In this document: positions 22,780 to 28,036 of the stretch, in pieces
Numbering within the stretch: the first letter of the stretch is position 1
Layout of the letters: every line of letters starts with the position of its first letter
Virus record (IMG/VR): IMGVR_UViG_3300025120_009293
Span: 1-28,069 of that record
Source of the DNA: a virus
DNA length: 28,069 nt
Strand: one strand, 5' to 3'
Notes under the pieces: model-generated
What the model was told of the DNA's origin: nothing
The model's database searches: none
The model's input: only the letters and a program-made list of their open reading frames with translations
Program-made: the position numbers and the translations under genes

Positions 22780-23189
22780 ATTTATTTCAAGACGGCGACT
22801 TTACAAGTCACGCAGGATTGCCACTCAAGTGGAAACTAGAGTGTGATGCTATTACAGACGACGAATGGCGTTGCCTAGCAAAAATGGTTATGGATTATCA
22901 AACTCGTCCTTTTTATAAAGCAGTTGGAATTCCTAGAGGAGGCCTTAAATTTGCAGAAGCAATGAATGAATATGCAAGTGGTAACGACACAGATCAAATT
23001 ATGATCTGTGATGATGTGTTTACTACAGGTACAAGTATGTTAGATTTTATTAAAGAAGAATATCCAATGTGGTCTATGGGCCAAGGATATCGTTGGGTAG
23101 CATTTGCTAGAAAGCCTAGCAACGTAAACCCTTATCATACTAGAGCATTATTTACAATGCCAAATGTTACTACTGAGGAATATAAATGA
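22776..23189 (+). CDS. Phosphoribosyltransferase-like protein
   Basis: The protein has 137 residues from ATG 22776, chosen for its GGGGAG site and ATGA overlap. The PRPP-binding loop IMICDDVFTTGTSM (75-88) is a clear type I PRTase signature (two acidic residues, then TTGTS), and VGIPRGGLKFAEAM (50-63) matches the preceding PPi-loop region. The protein is short for orotate or hypoxanthine PRTases (about 180-210 aa), so the hood that selects the base is reduced and the substrate cannot be named. It is coupled to kdsA by an ATGA overlap. Confidence 0.85.
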   Translation: MNLFQDGDFTSHAGLPLKWKLECDAITDDEWRCLAKMVMDYQTRPFYKAVGIPRGGLKFAEAMNEYASGNDTDQIMICDDVFTTGTSMLDFIKEEYPMWSMGQGYRWVAFARKPSNVNPYHTRALFTMPNVTTEEYK

Positions 23190-23956
23190 GAATTATAGCA
23201 GGACCGTGTCAACACGAAACAATTGAACAAAGTTTAGAAATTGCAATGGAATGTAAACATGTATGCGACCTATATGGAATTGAATACATATTCAAAGCAA
23301 GTTTTGATAAAGCAAATAGAAGTAGTATGCAAGGGCAAAGAGGTCTTGGACTAATGCCTACATTACATGCGTTTGCCGATTTAAAATCAGAAATAAAAGA
23401 TTTAAAAATTTTAACAGACGTTCACACAGTAGAGCAAGTGCGAGAGCTTGCTGATAGTCCGTTGATTGATGTTTTACAAATACCTGCATTCTTATGTAGG
23501 CAAACTGATCTAGTGCAAGCTGCTTGTGCTACAGACAAGATTGTAAATATTAAAAAAGGACAGTTCTTAGCACCTTGGGATATGAAAGGTATACTGTCAA
23601 AGACAGATAAAGCTAAAGAAGTTTGGATAACAGAGAGAGGAACAAGTTTTGGATACAATACTCTTGTTGTTGATTTTACCGGTTTGGATTACATGCTTAA
23701 TAATTATGATACCCCTGTGGTTCTTGATGCCACCCACTCAGTACAGAAACCAGGCGGCAATGGAGATAGTAGCGGCGGCAATAGGGATTACGTTCCTGGC
23801 TTATGTCGTGCAGGTAGTGCTTTGGGTATTACAAATTTCTTTATAGAAGTACATGCTGATCCTGATATAGCACCTAGTGATGGTCCTAACATGCTACGCT
23901 TGAAAGATTTTGAAAGGGTTGTTGATGACATCGTCCGCTATTCTTATACCAGCTAG
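23186..23956 (+). CDS. kdsA: 3-deoxy-D-manno-octulosonate-8-phosphate synthase
   Basis: KdsA condenses phosphoenolpyruvate with arabinose-5-phosphate to Kdo-8-phosphate, the first committed step to the LPS sugar Kdo. The 256-aa product has the family blocks FKASFDKANRSS (36-47), LTDVHTVEQV, LQIPAFLCRQTDLV (97-110), NIKKGQFLAPWDM (121-133), ERGTSFGYNTLVVDF and DATHSVQKPGG (181-191). C8 (in AGPC), H184, E221 and D232 fit the four ligands of the metal-dependent class, whereas E. coli KdsA has Asn at the Cys position. It is about 25 residues shorter than usual, mostly at the N-terminus. It overlaps kdsB by 32 nt. Confidence 0.95.
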   Translation: MRIIAGPCQHETIEQSLEIAMECKHVCDLYGIEYIFKASFDKANRSSMQGQRGLGLMPTLHAFADLKSEIKDLKILTDVHTVEQVRELADSPLIDVLQIPAFLCRQTDLVQAACATDKIVNIKKGQFLAPWDMKGILSKTDKAKEVWITERGTSFGYNTLVVDFTGLDYMLNNYDTPVVLDATHSVQKPGGNGDSSGGNRDYVPGLCRAGSALGITNFFIEVHADPDIAPSDGPNMLRLKDFERVVDDIVRYSYTS

Positions 23957-24608
23957 ATACGGTAGTACACGCTACCCTGGAAAGCCGTTGGTTAACTTAG
24001 ATGGCGTTCCTATGATAAAACGTGTGTATGACGCTTGTATTGCGTCTAAGACACCAACATATGTACTAACTGATGATGTACGTATTGCTAGTATATTTCA
24101 AAATACAAGTGTTATTATAGAAGACACAGACTATATAAACGGCACTGAAAGATGTGCTGGCGCTAGTAAATTAGACTACATGCAGAAGTACGATAAGTTT
24201 ATTAATGTACAAGGCGATATGCCTGATATAACTACTGAGATGATTGAAACTTGTGTTGGATTATTAGATGAATATCCTGTTTCAACAGTGTATACTGAGA
24301 TGCCTGAAGAAATGCAAAATGATCCTAACTCAGTTAAAATGGTACGTGCAGGCAATAGTGCGTTATGGTTTGGTAGAGGTATGACAGGTTATGGTGATTG
24401 GCACTTGGGTGTATATGGATATACTCGTGATGCATTACAGTCATATATAACATTACCGCAAGAACGTGAAGAAAAGATTGAGCAACTAGAACAACTACGA
24501 TGGCTAAAAAGTGGTTGCAAAATAGGTTGTTCTAGTGTATACTTTAATGGTATAGAAATAAATGCACCACAGGACGTAATAGAATGGCACAACAAACACT
24601 CCCTATAA
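23925..24608 (+). CDS. kdsB: CMP-Kdo synthetase (3-deoxy-manno-octulosonate cytidylyltransferase)
   Basis: KdsB activates Kdo with CTP to CMP-Kdo for transfer to lipid A or capsule. The 227-aa product starts at ATG 23925 behind AAAGGG. Signatures are LIPARYGSTRYPGKPLV (7-23), NGTERCAGA (72-80), FINVQGDMPDI (92-102) and HLGVYGYTRDAL. The usual QGDEP reads QGDMP here, so the Glu after the conserved Asp is replaced. It is about 20 residues shorter than typical bacterial KdsB. The Kdo-8-phosphate phosphatase (KdsC) that should act between KdsA and KdsB is not in this window and may come from the host. Confidence 0.93.
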   Translation: MTSSAILIPARYGSTRYPGKPLVNLDGVPMIKRVYDACIASKTPTYVLTDDVRIASIFQNTSVIIEDTDYINGTERCAGASKLDYMQKYDKFINVQGDMPDITTEMIETCVGLLDEYPVSTVYTEMPEEMQNDPNSVKMVRAGNSALWFGRGMTGYGDWHLGVYGYTRDALQSYITLPQEREEKIEQLEQLRWLKSGCKIGCSSVYFNGIEINAPQDVIEWHNKHSL

Positions 24609-25039
24609 AAGATATACTAGCCGCTATTGATATGGGCGCAAAAAGTATATGGGACGAAATAACTGATGACGAACGTAAGCAAATTAATTTTTGGTTGTTA
24701 AATAGATATGCAAGTAATGTTGGCGGATCTAGAGATGCACAAGAACTTGCTGTGTTTAAGACAAACGAATATTATAACAAAAACTGGAATGTACTAGGAG
24801 CCAAACATCCTAAATTACAATGGCAGTTGTTATGTCAATCAGGAAACACAGGTAAAATAGAATGGCACAAGTGGCAAGGTTTTAAAAAGAAAACAACAAA
24901 CAATAATGGTATAAAATTATTGCTACAAGTGTATCCTAATATGAAAATGGACGAGGTAGAATTACTTGCTAGAACATCTACAAAAAAAGAACTCAAACAA
25001 TTGGCTGAAGAACATGGTATCGAAAACGCCAAGCTCTAA
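24584..25039 (+). CDS. Conserved phage protein, possible distant gp62 clamp-loader relative
   Basis: The 151-aa product overlaps kdsB by 25 nt. It contains FWLLNRYASNVGG (near 36-48), KTNEYYNKNW, KHPKLQWQLL and HKWQGFKKK, ending in a helix (TSTKKELKQLAEEHG). The order NR..S, NE, LQ..LL, W.KW resembles the pattern I associate with the small clamp-loader subunit gp62 of marine T4-like phages, but I cannot verify this and no gp44 is nearby. Treat as unknown with that suggestion. Confidence 0.72.
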   Translation: MAQQTLPIKDILAAIDMGAKSIWDEITDDERKQINFWLLNRYASNVGGSRDAQELAVFKTNEYYNKNWNVLGAKHPKLQWQLLCQSGNTGKIEWHKWQGFKKKTTNNNGIKLLLQVYPNMKMDEVELLARTSTKKELKQLAEEHGIENAKL

Positions 25040-25715
25040 ACCATATGTTTGCAAGTATTGCAATGTTGGTTATACAAAAGAAAAAACTCTTGCGGTTCAC
25101 ATGTGCGAGAAAAAACGTAGAGCTTTACAAAAAGATGAACGTCGAGTGCGATATGGATATTATGCATTTCAAAGATTTTATGAACTCTCTATGAATACTA
25201 AGAATACAAAAACATATGAAGAATTTTGTAATAGTCCTTACTATAATGCCTTTGTAAAGTTTGGTAGTTTTATAAGCAATGTAAAACCATTATACCCAGA
25301 AAAATATATAGACTATGTTGTAAGATCTGGTGTTAAACTTGATCACTGGTGTAGAGATGAAATGTATGAAAAGTATGCAATTGAACTTATACAAAAAGAA
25401 GGAGTTGAAACAGCATTGGAACGTAGTGTAATGACTATGATGGAATGGGCTGATGAGAATACTCCTGCACCTTGGAATCATTACTTTGAACATGTAAGTT
25501 TGAATAGAGCAGTATGGCATATTAAAGATGGTAAGATAAGTCCTTGGTTATTACTAAATTGTAATAGTGGTAAGAATATGTTAAGTAAATTTAATGACGA
25601 ACAACTAGCAATGATATTTCATATAGTTAATCCATCACATTGGGCAATCAGATTTAAAAGACAATCTACAGATGTAGATCTTGTTAAAGAGGTTGTAAAG
25701 GAAAGTAATTTATGA
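25014..25715 (+). CDS. Zinc-finger-containing conserved phage protein
   Basis: From ATG 25014 the protein has 233 residues. An N-terminal zinc-finger-like motif, YVCKYCNVGYTKEKTLAVHMC, gives C13, C16, H29 and C31 in the pattern C-x2-C-x12-H-x-C. A Lys/Arg-rich stretch (KKRRALQKDERRVR) follows, then a helical domain with NSPYYNAFVKFGSFI and KLDHWCRDEMYEKY. Similar proteins are, as far as I recall, widespread in marine T4-like phages. Nucleic-acid binding is likely from the finger plus basic stretch; a role in transcription or replication is a guess. It overlaps the previous gene by 26 nt and the next by 4 nt. Confidence 0.82.
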   Translation: MVSKTPSSKPYVCKYCNVGYTKEKTLAVHMCEKKRRALQKDERRVRYGYYAFQRFYELSMNTKNTKTYEEFCNSPYYNAFVKFGSFISNVKPLYPEKYIDYVVRSGVKLDHWCRDEMYEKYAIELIQKEGVETALERSVMTMMEWADENTPAPWNHYFEHVSLNRAVWHIKDGKISPWLLLNCNSGKNMLSKFNDEQLAMIFHIVNPSHWAIRFKRQSTDVDLVKEVVKESNL

Positions 25716-26302
25716 AACACACTAAAATAACAGACTTTATATATAATTTTGAAAATGTATTACGCAGAGATACATTTTTTACACTGAGTGAATTGCTAAC
25801 GAACGCAGAAGGATACCATGTAAGTGATGTACGTCCTGGCAATAGCAAGATGACTGTAAAAAATGAATTAGTGTTTGGACTGTTAGCACACATGAGAGAA
25901 AAAGTATTTGAACAAATACCTGAGCTACAACAAGAAGGCTTCGGCTGGCAGACACTAGACTTTCAATGGTGTAACGCATTGGCAAAAGGTCCAGTTAATG
26001 AAGCACATTGGCATACTGACGGTAAGCCTACTGAACTTATGATTGTGTTTTATTTTCATCATACATGGAGAGAAGATTGGAATGGTTGTTTACAATTTGA
26101 CAACACTGACATTATACCTAAACCTAATAGTTGTGTTGTTTTTCCTGCAAACATTCATCATAGAATACAGCCGTCAACATTAGATGCAAAAAGTTGGAGG
26201 TATAGTGTAACGTTTCCTACAACAGTTACTGAACAACCTTGGAAAATTGATTGCAATAAAATTAACAAAAAACTAAGCGAACTACCATATGCCAGATATT
26301 GA
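25712..26302 (+). CDS. 2OG-Fe(II) oxygenase-like protein
   Basis: The 196-aa product has the double-stranded beta-helix iron site of 2-oxoglutarate dioxygenases: HWHTD (H101, D103), a distal His in FPANIHHRI (H149 or H150) and R163 in SWRYSVTF for 2-oxoglutarate. Between them lie IVFYFHHTWREDWNGCLQF and PKPNSCVVF, the usual strands. The substrate is unknown; P4H-type hydroxylases and sugar or base hydroxylases are options. The start is in an ATGA overlap with the zinc-finger gene and the end overlaps the next gene by 14 nt. Confidence 0.88.
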   Translation: MKHTKITDFIYNFENVLRRDTFFTLSELLTNAEGYHVSDVRPGNSKMTVKNELVFGLLAHMREKVFEQIPELQQEGFGWQTLDFQWCNALAKGPVNEAHWHTDGKPTELMIVFYFHHTWREDWNGCLQFDNTDIIPKPNSCVVFPANIHHRIQPSTLDAKSWRYSVTFPTTVTEQPWKIDCNKINKKLSELPYARY

Positions 26303-26849
26303 TATAGATTTTGCAAATAGAGATATTATTCTAAACGAAGTAAAACATCGTGTGGCAAAATTAGATACAGGTAAAAAACATAACACAGGTGTGTACGCAA
26401 CAGAAATTCCGCACAATCCTGTAGACAACATAAGTACTATTGAACACAAGACCGCAGAAGAACGCGGCTATTTCAAACTAGACTTTTTAAACGTAAGCAT
26501 CTATAAAGATGTAAACAACGAGCAACATTTAACAGAATTAATGGAAAGGAAACCACTATGGGAACTATTGGAACACAAAGACTTCTCAGACAAAGTATTT
26601 CATCTAAACGGGCACAACGAACTGTTGAAGCAATTGAAACCGTCATCGGTAGAACAATTAGCAGCAACACTAGCAATTATCCGACCAGCCAAAAGACATT
26701 TAGTAGACAAAGACTGGCAAACAATAATGAACGAAGTATGGTTAAGACCAACAAACGGTGAATACTTTTTTAAGAAGGCACACGCATTTGCTTATGCTTT
26801 ATCCGTAGTAGTACATATAAACTTATTGTGTGAAAAATTTAAGTCTTAG
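26289..26849 (+). CDS. Miniature DnaE-like (PolIII alpha) protein
   Basis: The 186-aa protein carries short motifs of bacterial C-family DNA polymerases in their native order: PDIDIDF (2-8) like the catalytic PDxDxDF loop; HNTGVY (31-36) like the HxxGV element; GYFKLDFLNVSIY (60-72) like KxDFLGL, with D65 at the third catalytic Asp; PSSVEQLAATLAIIRP (118-133) like PxSFxDLxAxxALxRPG; and FKKAHAFAYA (161-170) like FNKSHAxAYA. Full DnaE is about 1,150 aa, so PHP, most of the fingers, beta-binding and OB parts are absent. It may be a minimal palm-derived protein with a non-polymerase role, or a subunit. It overlaps the upstream gene by 14 nt and the convergent gene by 11 bp. Confidence 0.82.
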   Translation: MPDIDIDFANRDIILNEVKHRVAKLDTGKKHNTGVYATEIPHNPVDNISTIEHKTAEERGYFKLDFLNVSIYKDVNNEQHLTELMERKPLWELLEHKDFSDKVFHLNGHNELLKQLKPSSVEQLAATLAIIRPAKRHLVDKDWQTIMNEVWLRPTNGEYFFKKAHAFAYALSVVVHINLLCEKFKS

Positions 26850-27213
26850 GTGGTTTTCTAACTAACTGTACATTCTTACGTTTAACTCTTCTAATAGCTA
26901 AATTAGAAATATTTACAGTAGGTCCTATTGTAATTTTTACATCTTTACTATTCATAGTCATCATTGCATAGTTAAGTCCTGATATTTCTCTACGTAGAAA
27001 TATATTAATAGGAATCATTCTATTTGATTCCCACCACCATGCATCACCTAATTCAAGTAATTTCTTTTTGCTTTCTTCTGATCTAAGTGCAGTATACACA
27101 TACATTGATGTAATATACTGATCTTGGTTGGCAATTATACCAACATATTCGTTACCACCATATGTAACGACACTAATAAAGGGATAATTTTTTTCAATAT
27201 CTTTTAATAACAT
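26839..27213 (-). CDS. Conserved phage protein of unknown function
   Basis: The start is placed at ATG 27213 (MLLKDIEKNYPFISV, 124 aa); an upstream in-frame ATG at 27372 would run into the divergent gene. The protein has a beta-rich first half (VVTYGGNEYVGIIANQDQYITS) and a WWWESNRMIPINIFLRREI block in the middle, with a basic tail (RRVKRKNVQLVRKPPKT). The short beta-rich layout with an early EYVGII segment suggests a small barrel; a resemblance to Sm-like or other RNA-binding folds is possible but weak. It diverges from the virion gene and converges with the DnaE-like gene. Confidence 0.78.
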   Translation of the reverse strand: MLLKDIEKNYPFISVVTYGGNEYVGIIANQDQYITSMYVYTALRSEESKKKLLELGDAWWWESNRMIPINIFLRREISGLNYAMMTMNSKDVKITIGPTVNISNLAIRRVKRKNVQLVRKPPKT

Positions 27214-27231
27214 AAATTCTCTAATAAGACT

Positions 27232-27244: not shown

Positions 27245-28036
27245 ATGCAGCTAACACCTAGATATTTAGTCACAAACAGAATTAACGTCCTCGCTAATGA
27301 AGCAGGACACATAACGGAGTATAGACCAATGTACCAGAGACATTTACAAGTATATAGAGGTATTGATAACAAAGTACAATTTAGATTATTAAATGCCGAT
27401 CAAAGACCAATTAGTACAAACGATAAAACACCTGTATTTGTAGCATTTGACGAAGCAGATACAATGCTATTTGAAAGCGACTGCACAGTATCAGATGATG
27501 GTAGTAGTACAACAAGAGGTCTGTTTGAATTTACAATTACTGAATCTTCGCTACGTAGTGTTAAATCTCAATATTTAAAGTATCACATATATTTAAAAGA
27601 TACTACTACTAATGATAAAGAAATAACATACAGCAATACTGGGTTTGGTAATGATGGTGTTATGTTTGTTAGTACTGAAATGTATCCTGGACCAAAACTA
27701 AGTATAAGTGTTCCTGCATTTTATGAATCAGGAGATGTTGCTGGTGAATATATAACAGGTGGGATAGTTGCAGAACCTGCTAAGAACGGTAATGAAGCAT
27801 TACATACTGCTTCAATTTACACTACTGAATTTGTTGGCGATGTAGTTATACAAGGCACACTCACTAACCAACTAGACGGTATGGCTGAGAATTGGGCTGA
27901 TATAACAACTATAACGTTTGACGGAACTGAAACAGAACCTGTACCAAGTAATTTTACAGGTGTGTTTAACTTTTTACGTTTTAAAACAACAACAGTACCT
28001 ACAGACAAAATAACAAAAATATTGGTAAGAAACTAG
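27245..28036 (+). CDS. Putative virion or baseplate-type structural protein
   Basis: The 263-aa product is beta-rich and Thr/Ser/Asp-rich without hydrophobic segments. Its first domain (HLQVYRGIDNKVQFRLLNAD, then TPVFVAFDEADTMLFESDC) looks like the N-terminal immunoglobulin-like domain of baseplate upper proteins. A second beta domain follows, with ISVPAFYESGDVAGEYITGG and NFLRFKTTTVPTD near the end. A late-type promoter 5 nt before its ATG supports a structural role. Exact part unknown. Confidence 0.78.
   Translation: MQLTPRYLVTNRINVLANEAGHITEYRPMYQRHLQVYRGIDNKVQFRLLNADQRPISTNDKTPVFVAFDEADTMLFESDCTVSDDGSSTTRGLFEFTITESSLRSVKSQYLKYHIYLKDTTTNDKEITYSNTGFGNDGVMFVSTEMYPGPKLSISVPAFYESGDVAGEYITGGIVAEPAKNGNEALHTASIYTTEFVGDVVIQGTLTNQLDGMAENWADITTITFDGTETEPVPSNFTGVFNFLRFKTTTVPTDKITKILVRN

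What the first reader, a model, noticed from the sequence alone, without database searches (positions are those of the whole stretch)
26289..26849. 186-aa protein with the DnaE (PolIII alpha) catalytic motifs in native order
The sequence shows PDIDIDF, HNTGVY, GYFKLDFLN, PSSVEQLAATLAIIRP and FKKAHAFAYA at residues 2-8, 31-36, 60-68, 118-133 and 161-170. These correspond in order to the PDxDxDF, HxxGV, KxDFLGL, PxSFxDLxAxxALxRPG and FNKSHAxAY elements of C-family polymerases, and all three catalytic Asp positions have Asp. Everything else of the roughly 1,150-aa enzyme is missing. It could be a minimal nucleotidyltransferase, a stripped palm reused for another reaction, or a regulator that mimics the host polymerase core. 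It lies in a run with KdsA/KdsB and a 2OG oxygenase rather than next to a DNA polymerase gene.
Basis: partly seen in the sequence, partly recalled or inferred. Interest (0 to 1): 0.8.

Follow-up and report, generated by a model that had tools for sequence, protein, structure and literature searches.

The report
Half of a split phage DNA polymerase
The 186-residue protein is one half of a tiny bacterial-type replicative DNA polymerase that giant phages encode as two separate genes; the arrangement was described by computation in 2021, but I found no laboratory test of it.

Summary
In detail: the ORF at 26289-26849 carries the C-family polymerase motifs in order, and profile alignment to bacterial DnaE (94% probability; reversed control 0.7%) confirms homology. 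The interpretation that everything else is missing is wrong. Phages with this gene carry a second ~180-aa gene, tens of kb or more away, encoding the part of the Pol III alpha palm directly upstream, with the GRGSS nucleotide-binding loop. The second gene stops at ...EFLK and this one starts at MPDIDIDF, so the two meet at one point of the DnaE chain. 59 of 60 listed GenBank phage records with this gene also have the partner. D3, D5, D65 and H165 (E. coli D401, D403, D555, steric gate H760) are conserved in 90-91 of 91 homologs, arguing against a decoy or remnant. The pair lacks the PHP, thumb and tail domains. Modelled alone, the palm part of this half is unstructured, while the partner folds and matches Pol III alpha. 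Most likely the halves reconstitute a thumbless minimal Pol III alpha beside the phage's family B polymerase; its role is inferred. Iyer et al. 2021 (PMC7824862) already described this split enzyme. This is a marine-phage member of a known, apparently untested kind.

The parts
26289..26849 (+). C-terminal half of split minimal Pol III alpha: metal-binding palm segment plus reduced fingers, 186 aa (phrog_11778)
26289..26312 (+). MPDIDIDF motif; D3 and D5 = E. coli D401 and D403 (catalytic metal ligands)
   Evidence: 90/91 (one gap) and 91/91 homologs; E. coli numbering
26379..26396 (+). HNTGVY motif (H31, G34 = E. coli H511, G514); resumes the palm after the deleted thumb
   Evidence: H31 and G34 in 91/91; E. 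coli thumb is 433-509 (PMC4703070)
26475..26492 (+). K63-x-D65-F-L-N; D65 = E. coli D555, third catalytic Asp
   Evidence: K63 and D65 in 91/91
26682..26687 (+). R132-P133 of the fingers (E. coli R639-P640)
   Evidence: 91/91; DNA_pol3_finger match 103-135
26769..26798 (+). FKKAHAFAYA; H165 = E. coli H760, steric gate against ribonucleotides
   Evidence: H165 in 91/91; H760 role from PMC8485763
26839..27216 (-). Convergent neighbour, about 125 aa (phrog_11637, unknown function), 3' end overlapping the polymerase gene; conserved in the same place
24966..25715 (+). Upstream neighbour (phrog_11058) with an N-terminal C-x2-C...H-x-C zinc-finger-like motif; part of the conserved block, possible partner (inference)
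27245..28036 (+). Downstream virion structural protein (phrog_14467); in related phages followed by primase and helicase

Best explanation
This is the C-terminal half of a phage-specific, minimal C-family (Pol III alpha) polymerase encoded as two chains. The N half (~170-190 aa, phrog_11127, outside this window) supplies the helices before the palm and the GRGSS triphosphate-binding loop. The C half supplies the three metal-binding Asp and a shortened fingers domain ending just after the steric-gate helix. The halves are predicted to associate non-covalently into one palm-fingers nucleotidyltransferase without PHP, thumb, clamp-binding or OB domains. It should add dNTPs to a primer by the two-metal mechanism, probably with low processivity. 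The likely role, beside the phage's family B replicase, is gap filling, repair or lagging-strand/primer work. Shown: homology, split point, partner co-occurrence, conservation, domain loss. Inferred: complex formation, activity, biological role.
For: Split genes meet exactly: N ends ...GRGSSVASYVL.LIG.HK..S..Y.LD..EFLK (E. coli up to L392), C starts MPDIDIDF (from M399). N matches PF07733 over its cut-off. 59 of 60 listed GenBank records are shared, and 9 long IMG/VR contigs carry both. Catalytic residues conserved in 90-91 of 91 C homologs while other positions vary, and GRGSS in 61/61 N. Foldseek top hits are Pol III alpha for both halves. C residues 1-69 (D3, D5, D65) are low-confidence alone while 70-186 fold, as expected of half a palm. 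The conserved neighbourhood leads to primase and helicase. The same conclusion was published in PMC7824862.
Against: No complex could be modelled and no activity is known. The thumb, which holds primer-template in Pol III alpha, is deleted, so polymerase activity without another DNA-holding factor is uncertain. Foldseek E-values are weak (C half about 1, N half 0.008). The phages already have a family B polymerase. Some contigs have only one half: G001 (262 kb, C only, also no family B match) and G011 (359 kb, N only, family B present); both are linear and possibly incomplete.
Confidence: 0.82

Rival explanations
1. The pair is an active nucleotidyltransferase but not a template-directed DNA polymerase, for example an end-processing, terminal-transferase or primer-type enzyme.
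For: The thumb is missing and the fingers are strongly reduced, and a family B replicase is present.
Against: Steric-gate His and fingers RP motif kept in 91/91, which suggests dNTP selection and template contact are retained.
Confidence: 0.12
2. A regulator or decoy that mimics the host Pol III alpha core and binds host factors, without catalysis.
For: It lacks the enzyme's DNA-holding domains, and hosts use Pol III (inference only; no direct evidence found).
Against: Metal ligands, GRGSS and steric gate do not vary across homologs down to 32% identity. The PHP, clamp-binding and tail regions that bind host replisome partners are what is absent.
Confidence: 0.04
3. A decaying remnant of a full-length polymerase gene.
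For: It is 186 aa instead of ~1,160; one annotation paper called the N half truncated (PMC5259590).
Against: The same two sizes and the same split point recur in diverse phages, with intact frames and conserved catalytic residues.
Confidence: 0.02

Closest known systems
Split minimal Pol III alpha of group 2.2 jumbo phages (Iyer et al. 2021, PMC7824862)
   Different: This copy is from an uncultivated marine phage. Its N half is not in the 28-kb window; it was seen in long contigs of the same clade (G002, G018).
phrog_11778 (C half) and phrog_11127 (N half), 'DNA polymerase'
   Same: Whole-length matches: C 2e-56; N 6e-37 for the marine-clade copy
   Different: None of substance; the PHROGs entries seen here do not say that the two families form one enzyme.
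Bacterial DnaE / Pol III alpha
   Same: Palm and fingers motifs, metal ligands and steric gate in the same order
   Different: Two chains, about 365 aa in all instead of 1,160; no PHP, thumb, tip of fingers or C-terminal tail; shortened fingers
Cyanobacterial DnaE split by inteins (own knowledge)
   Same: A C-family polymerase encoded by two genes
   Different: There the split lies elsewhere and trans-splicing joins the halves. Here no room for an intein is present, so the two chains would stay separate.

Membership tests
C-family DNA polymerase (Pol III alpha) catalytic core | Three catalytic Asp (E. coli D401, D403, D555) | tested here: met
   D3, D5, D65 in 90, 91 and 91 of 91 homologs
C-family DNA polymerase (Pol III alpha) catalytic core | GRGS triphosphate-binding loop of the palm | tested here: met
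   Absent from this protein; present in 61/61 partner proteins
C-family DNA polymerase (Pol III alpha) catalytic core | Fingers with RP and steric-gate His | tested here: met
   R132, P133, H165 in 91/91
C-family DNA polymerase (Pol III alpha) catalytic core | Pol-beta-like palm fold | tested here: inconclusive
   N half confident, with Pol III alpha/PolC filling ranks 1-11; palm part of the C half disordered alone
Full-length DnaE | PHP, thumb, tip of fingers and C-terminal tail with clamp and tau binding | tested here: not met
   Alignments cover only E. coli ~272-392, 399-419, 541-641 and ~740-770
Split minimal Pol III alpha of jumbo phages | Two stand-alone halves encoded apart | tested here: met
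   In related genomes; the window itself is too short to be expected to hold the N gene
Split minimal Pol III alpha of jumbo phages | Accompanied by a family B polymerase | tested here: met
   All six phages fetched, G002, and 9 of 10 further long contigs; not visible in the 28-kb window itself
Split minimal Pol III alpha of jumbo phages | Halves associate and polymerise DNA | not testable with these tools
   No two-chain modelling or assay available

The most novel reading that the evidence does not exclude
A thumbless, two-chain C-family polymerase of about 365 residues acts as a dedicated second polymerase at the phage fork, with a conserved neighbour (perhaps the zinc-finger-like protein phrog_11058) holding the DNA in place of the missing thumb.
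Probability: 0.15. Interest if true: 0.75.

Novelty: new member of a known kind. Interest (0 to 1): 0.42.

Why it matters
If the two ~180-aa proteins are active together, they would be a very small C-family polymerase and a simple system for asking what the catalytic core of the bacterial replicase needs, how it evolved, and why giant phages keep it beside a family B replicase. The idea has been in print since 2021. What is added here is the partner's near-perfect co-occurrence in GenBank phages, the invariance of catalytic and steric-gate residues across 91 homologs, the exact split point, the deletion corresponding to the thumb, and the conserved neighbourhood in marine relatives.

Tried and rejected
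Searching the window for the missing half found nothing; a 28-kb fragment is too short to expect it. Natural fusions of the two halves: none among the ORFs of the 103 C-half and 94 N-half loci held at that point; a long open frame around one N half (L128) looks like a chance extension upstream. Cellular or prophage copies: a scan of bacterial and archaeal genomes gave only ordinary DnaE at 25-31% identity. Structure of the C half alone as a test of Asp clustering: uninformative, because that part is unstructured without its partner. An intein explanation of the split: rejected by inspection, since N ends and C starts at DnaE sequence with at most about 20 extra residues. Later experimental papers on the split enzyme: none found in the held open-access library, which does not hold most subscription papers. 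A mirror-tree test was considered and not run, because shared phage ancestry would give a high correlation anyway.

Full report
Observation. The window is a 28,069-base IMG/VR virus record. The ORF at 26289-26849 (+) starts with ATG, is 186 aa long and overlaps the end of the preceding ORF by 14 bases. It matches phrog_11778, annotated 'DNA polymerase', over its whole length (2e-56), and the fingers region of the ~1190-aa C-family phage polymerase profile phrog_405 (4e-8). Pfam (0.005) and NCBIfam (~0.001) see only weak Pol III alpha signals. HHalign against an alignment of bacterial DnaE gives collinear blocks at residues 1-19, 48-134 and 144-172, the best at 94% probability; the same profile reversed gives 0.7%. 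The motif order is therefore true homology, not chance.

What it is. Searching complete relatives with Pol III alpha profiles showed a second, ~170-190-aa ORF in all six GenBank phage genomes tested and in contig G002, well away from the first gene. It matches PF07733 over its cut-off and phrog_11127. Each copy ends with a GRGS loop followed by a stretch closing in ...EF(L/F)(K/N/R/E), at or within one residue of the stop, equivalent to E. coli DnaE up to L392, and the present gene begins with MPDIDIDF, from E. coli M399. The two genes split one catalytic domain at a single point. Among GenBank phages, 59 of 60 listed records with the C half are also listed with the N half; the C-only record is a 109-kb partial genome, and the one N-only record may be the C record that fell off the 60-row list. 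In IMG/VR, nine contigs of 228-462 kb hold both. G002 and G018 belong to the window's own clade by C-half similarity.

Conservation. In an alignment of 91 C halves down to 32% identity to the window, D3 (90/91, one gap), D5, D7, H31, G34, K63, D65, R132, P133, H165 and Y169 do not vary, while control positions vary freely. By position these are E. coli D401, D403, D405, H511, G514, K553, D555, R639, P640, H760 and Y764. H760 is the presumed steric gate of Pol III alpha (PMC8485763). GRGSS is invariant in 61 N halves. This is the pattern of an active enzyme, not of a mimic or remnant.

What is missing. The aligned E. coli stretches are about 272-392 (N half) and 399-419, 541-641 and ~740-770 (C half). 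Domain limits from PMC4703070 are PHP 1-280, palm-fingers 281-432 + 510-810, thumb 433-509, tip of fingers 811-928 and tail 929-1160. The 23 residues between D7 and H31 replace 105 in E. coli, so the deletion corresponds to the thumb. The N half has about 70 N-terminal residues not aligned to DnaE.

Structure. AlphaFold2 of the C half alone gives confident residues 70-186 but pLDDT mostly below 50 for 1-69, which carry D3, D5 and D65. The N half alone is confident (mean 88.6). Foldseek ranks Pol III alpha first for both: ranks 1-12 for C, although E is about 1 or worse; ranks 1-11 Pol III alpha/PolC for N, best E 0.008, probability 1.00. A palm shared by two chains would behave this way.

Surroundings. 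In related jumbo phages the gene lies upstream of a convergent small gene, a virion structural gene, the primase and the helicase, and in several downstream of uvsX, uvsY, a DnaQ-like exonuclease and uvsW. Among 80 marine loci, the upstream phrog_11758 and phrog_11058 genes and the downstream phrog_11637 and virion genes are present in 73-80. The N half lies near the clamp loader and topoisomerase genes in RaK2 and GAP32.

Mechanism. Most likely (inferred) the N and C chains assemble into one palm-fingers site: GRGSS binds the triphosphate, D3/D5/D65 bind the two metals, and H165 excludes ribonucleotides. Without thumb and clamp-binding domains it should be distributive unless a partner holds the DNA. 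A family B polymerase is encoded as well, so a repair, gap-filling or strand-specific role is more likely than sole replicase. Exceptions to co-occurrence, G001 and G011, are linear contigs that may be incomplete.

Known or new. Iyer et al. [quoted passage not shown] Two earlier genome papers, as far as read here, mention one alpha-like protein only (PMC6102473, PMC5259590). The present protein is a marine member of that kind. I found no experimental test in the held library.

Noticed in passing
window 24966-25715: Upstream neighbour phrog_11058 belongs to a family with a conserved N-terminal C-x2-C...H-x-C zinc-finger-like motif, found in 89 of 91 loci examined; function unknown.
   Followed up: partly
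window 26839-27216 (-): Convergent gene phrog_11637, conserved in position in marine loci and most jumbo phages examined (WW.ESNR.IP motif), no known function.
   Followed up: partly
window 25712-26302: 2OG-Fe(II) oxygenase directly before the polymerase gene; no match in any of 80 related loci, so probably a local insertion.
   Followed up: partly
window 23186-24608: Adjacent DAHP/KdsA-type synthase and CMP-sugar (KdsB-type) transferase genes, suggesting KDO-like sugar synthesis by the phage; matches in 48 and 60 of 80 related loci.
   Followed up: partly
GenBank orthologs, e.g. JN882285 (GAP32), KU574722 (CBB): Orthologs of the C half are annotated 'putative membrane protein' in several records, probably a misannotation.
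   Followed up: no
PHROGs phrog_7513 and phrog_13169: Two other phage families of about 460 aa match the N half close to their C-terminal ends, which may mean that other phages also split Pol III alpha near this point.
   Followed up: no
N half, residues 1-70 (e.g. L202:8001-8210): An N-terminal region that does not align to DnaE; predicted folded, function unknown.
   Followed up: no
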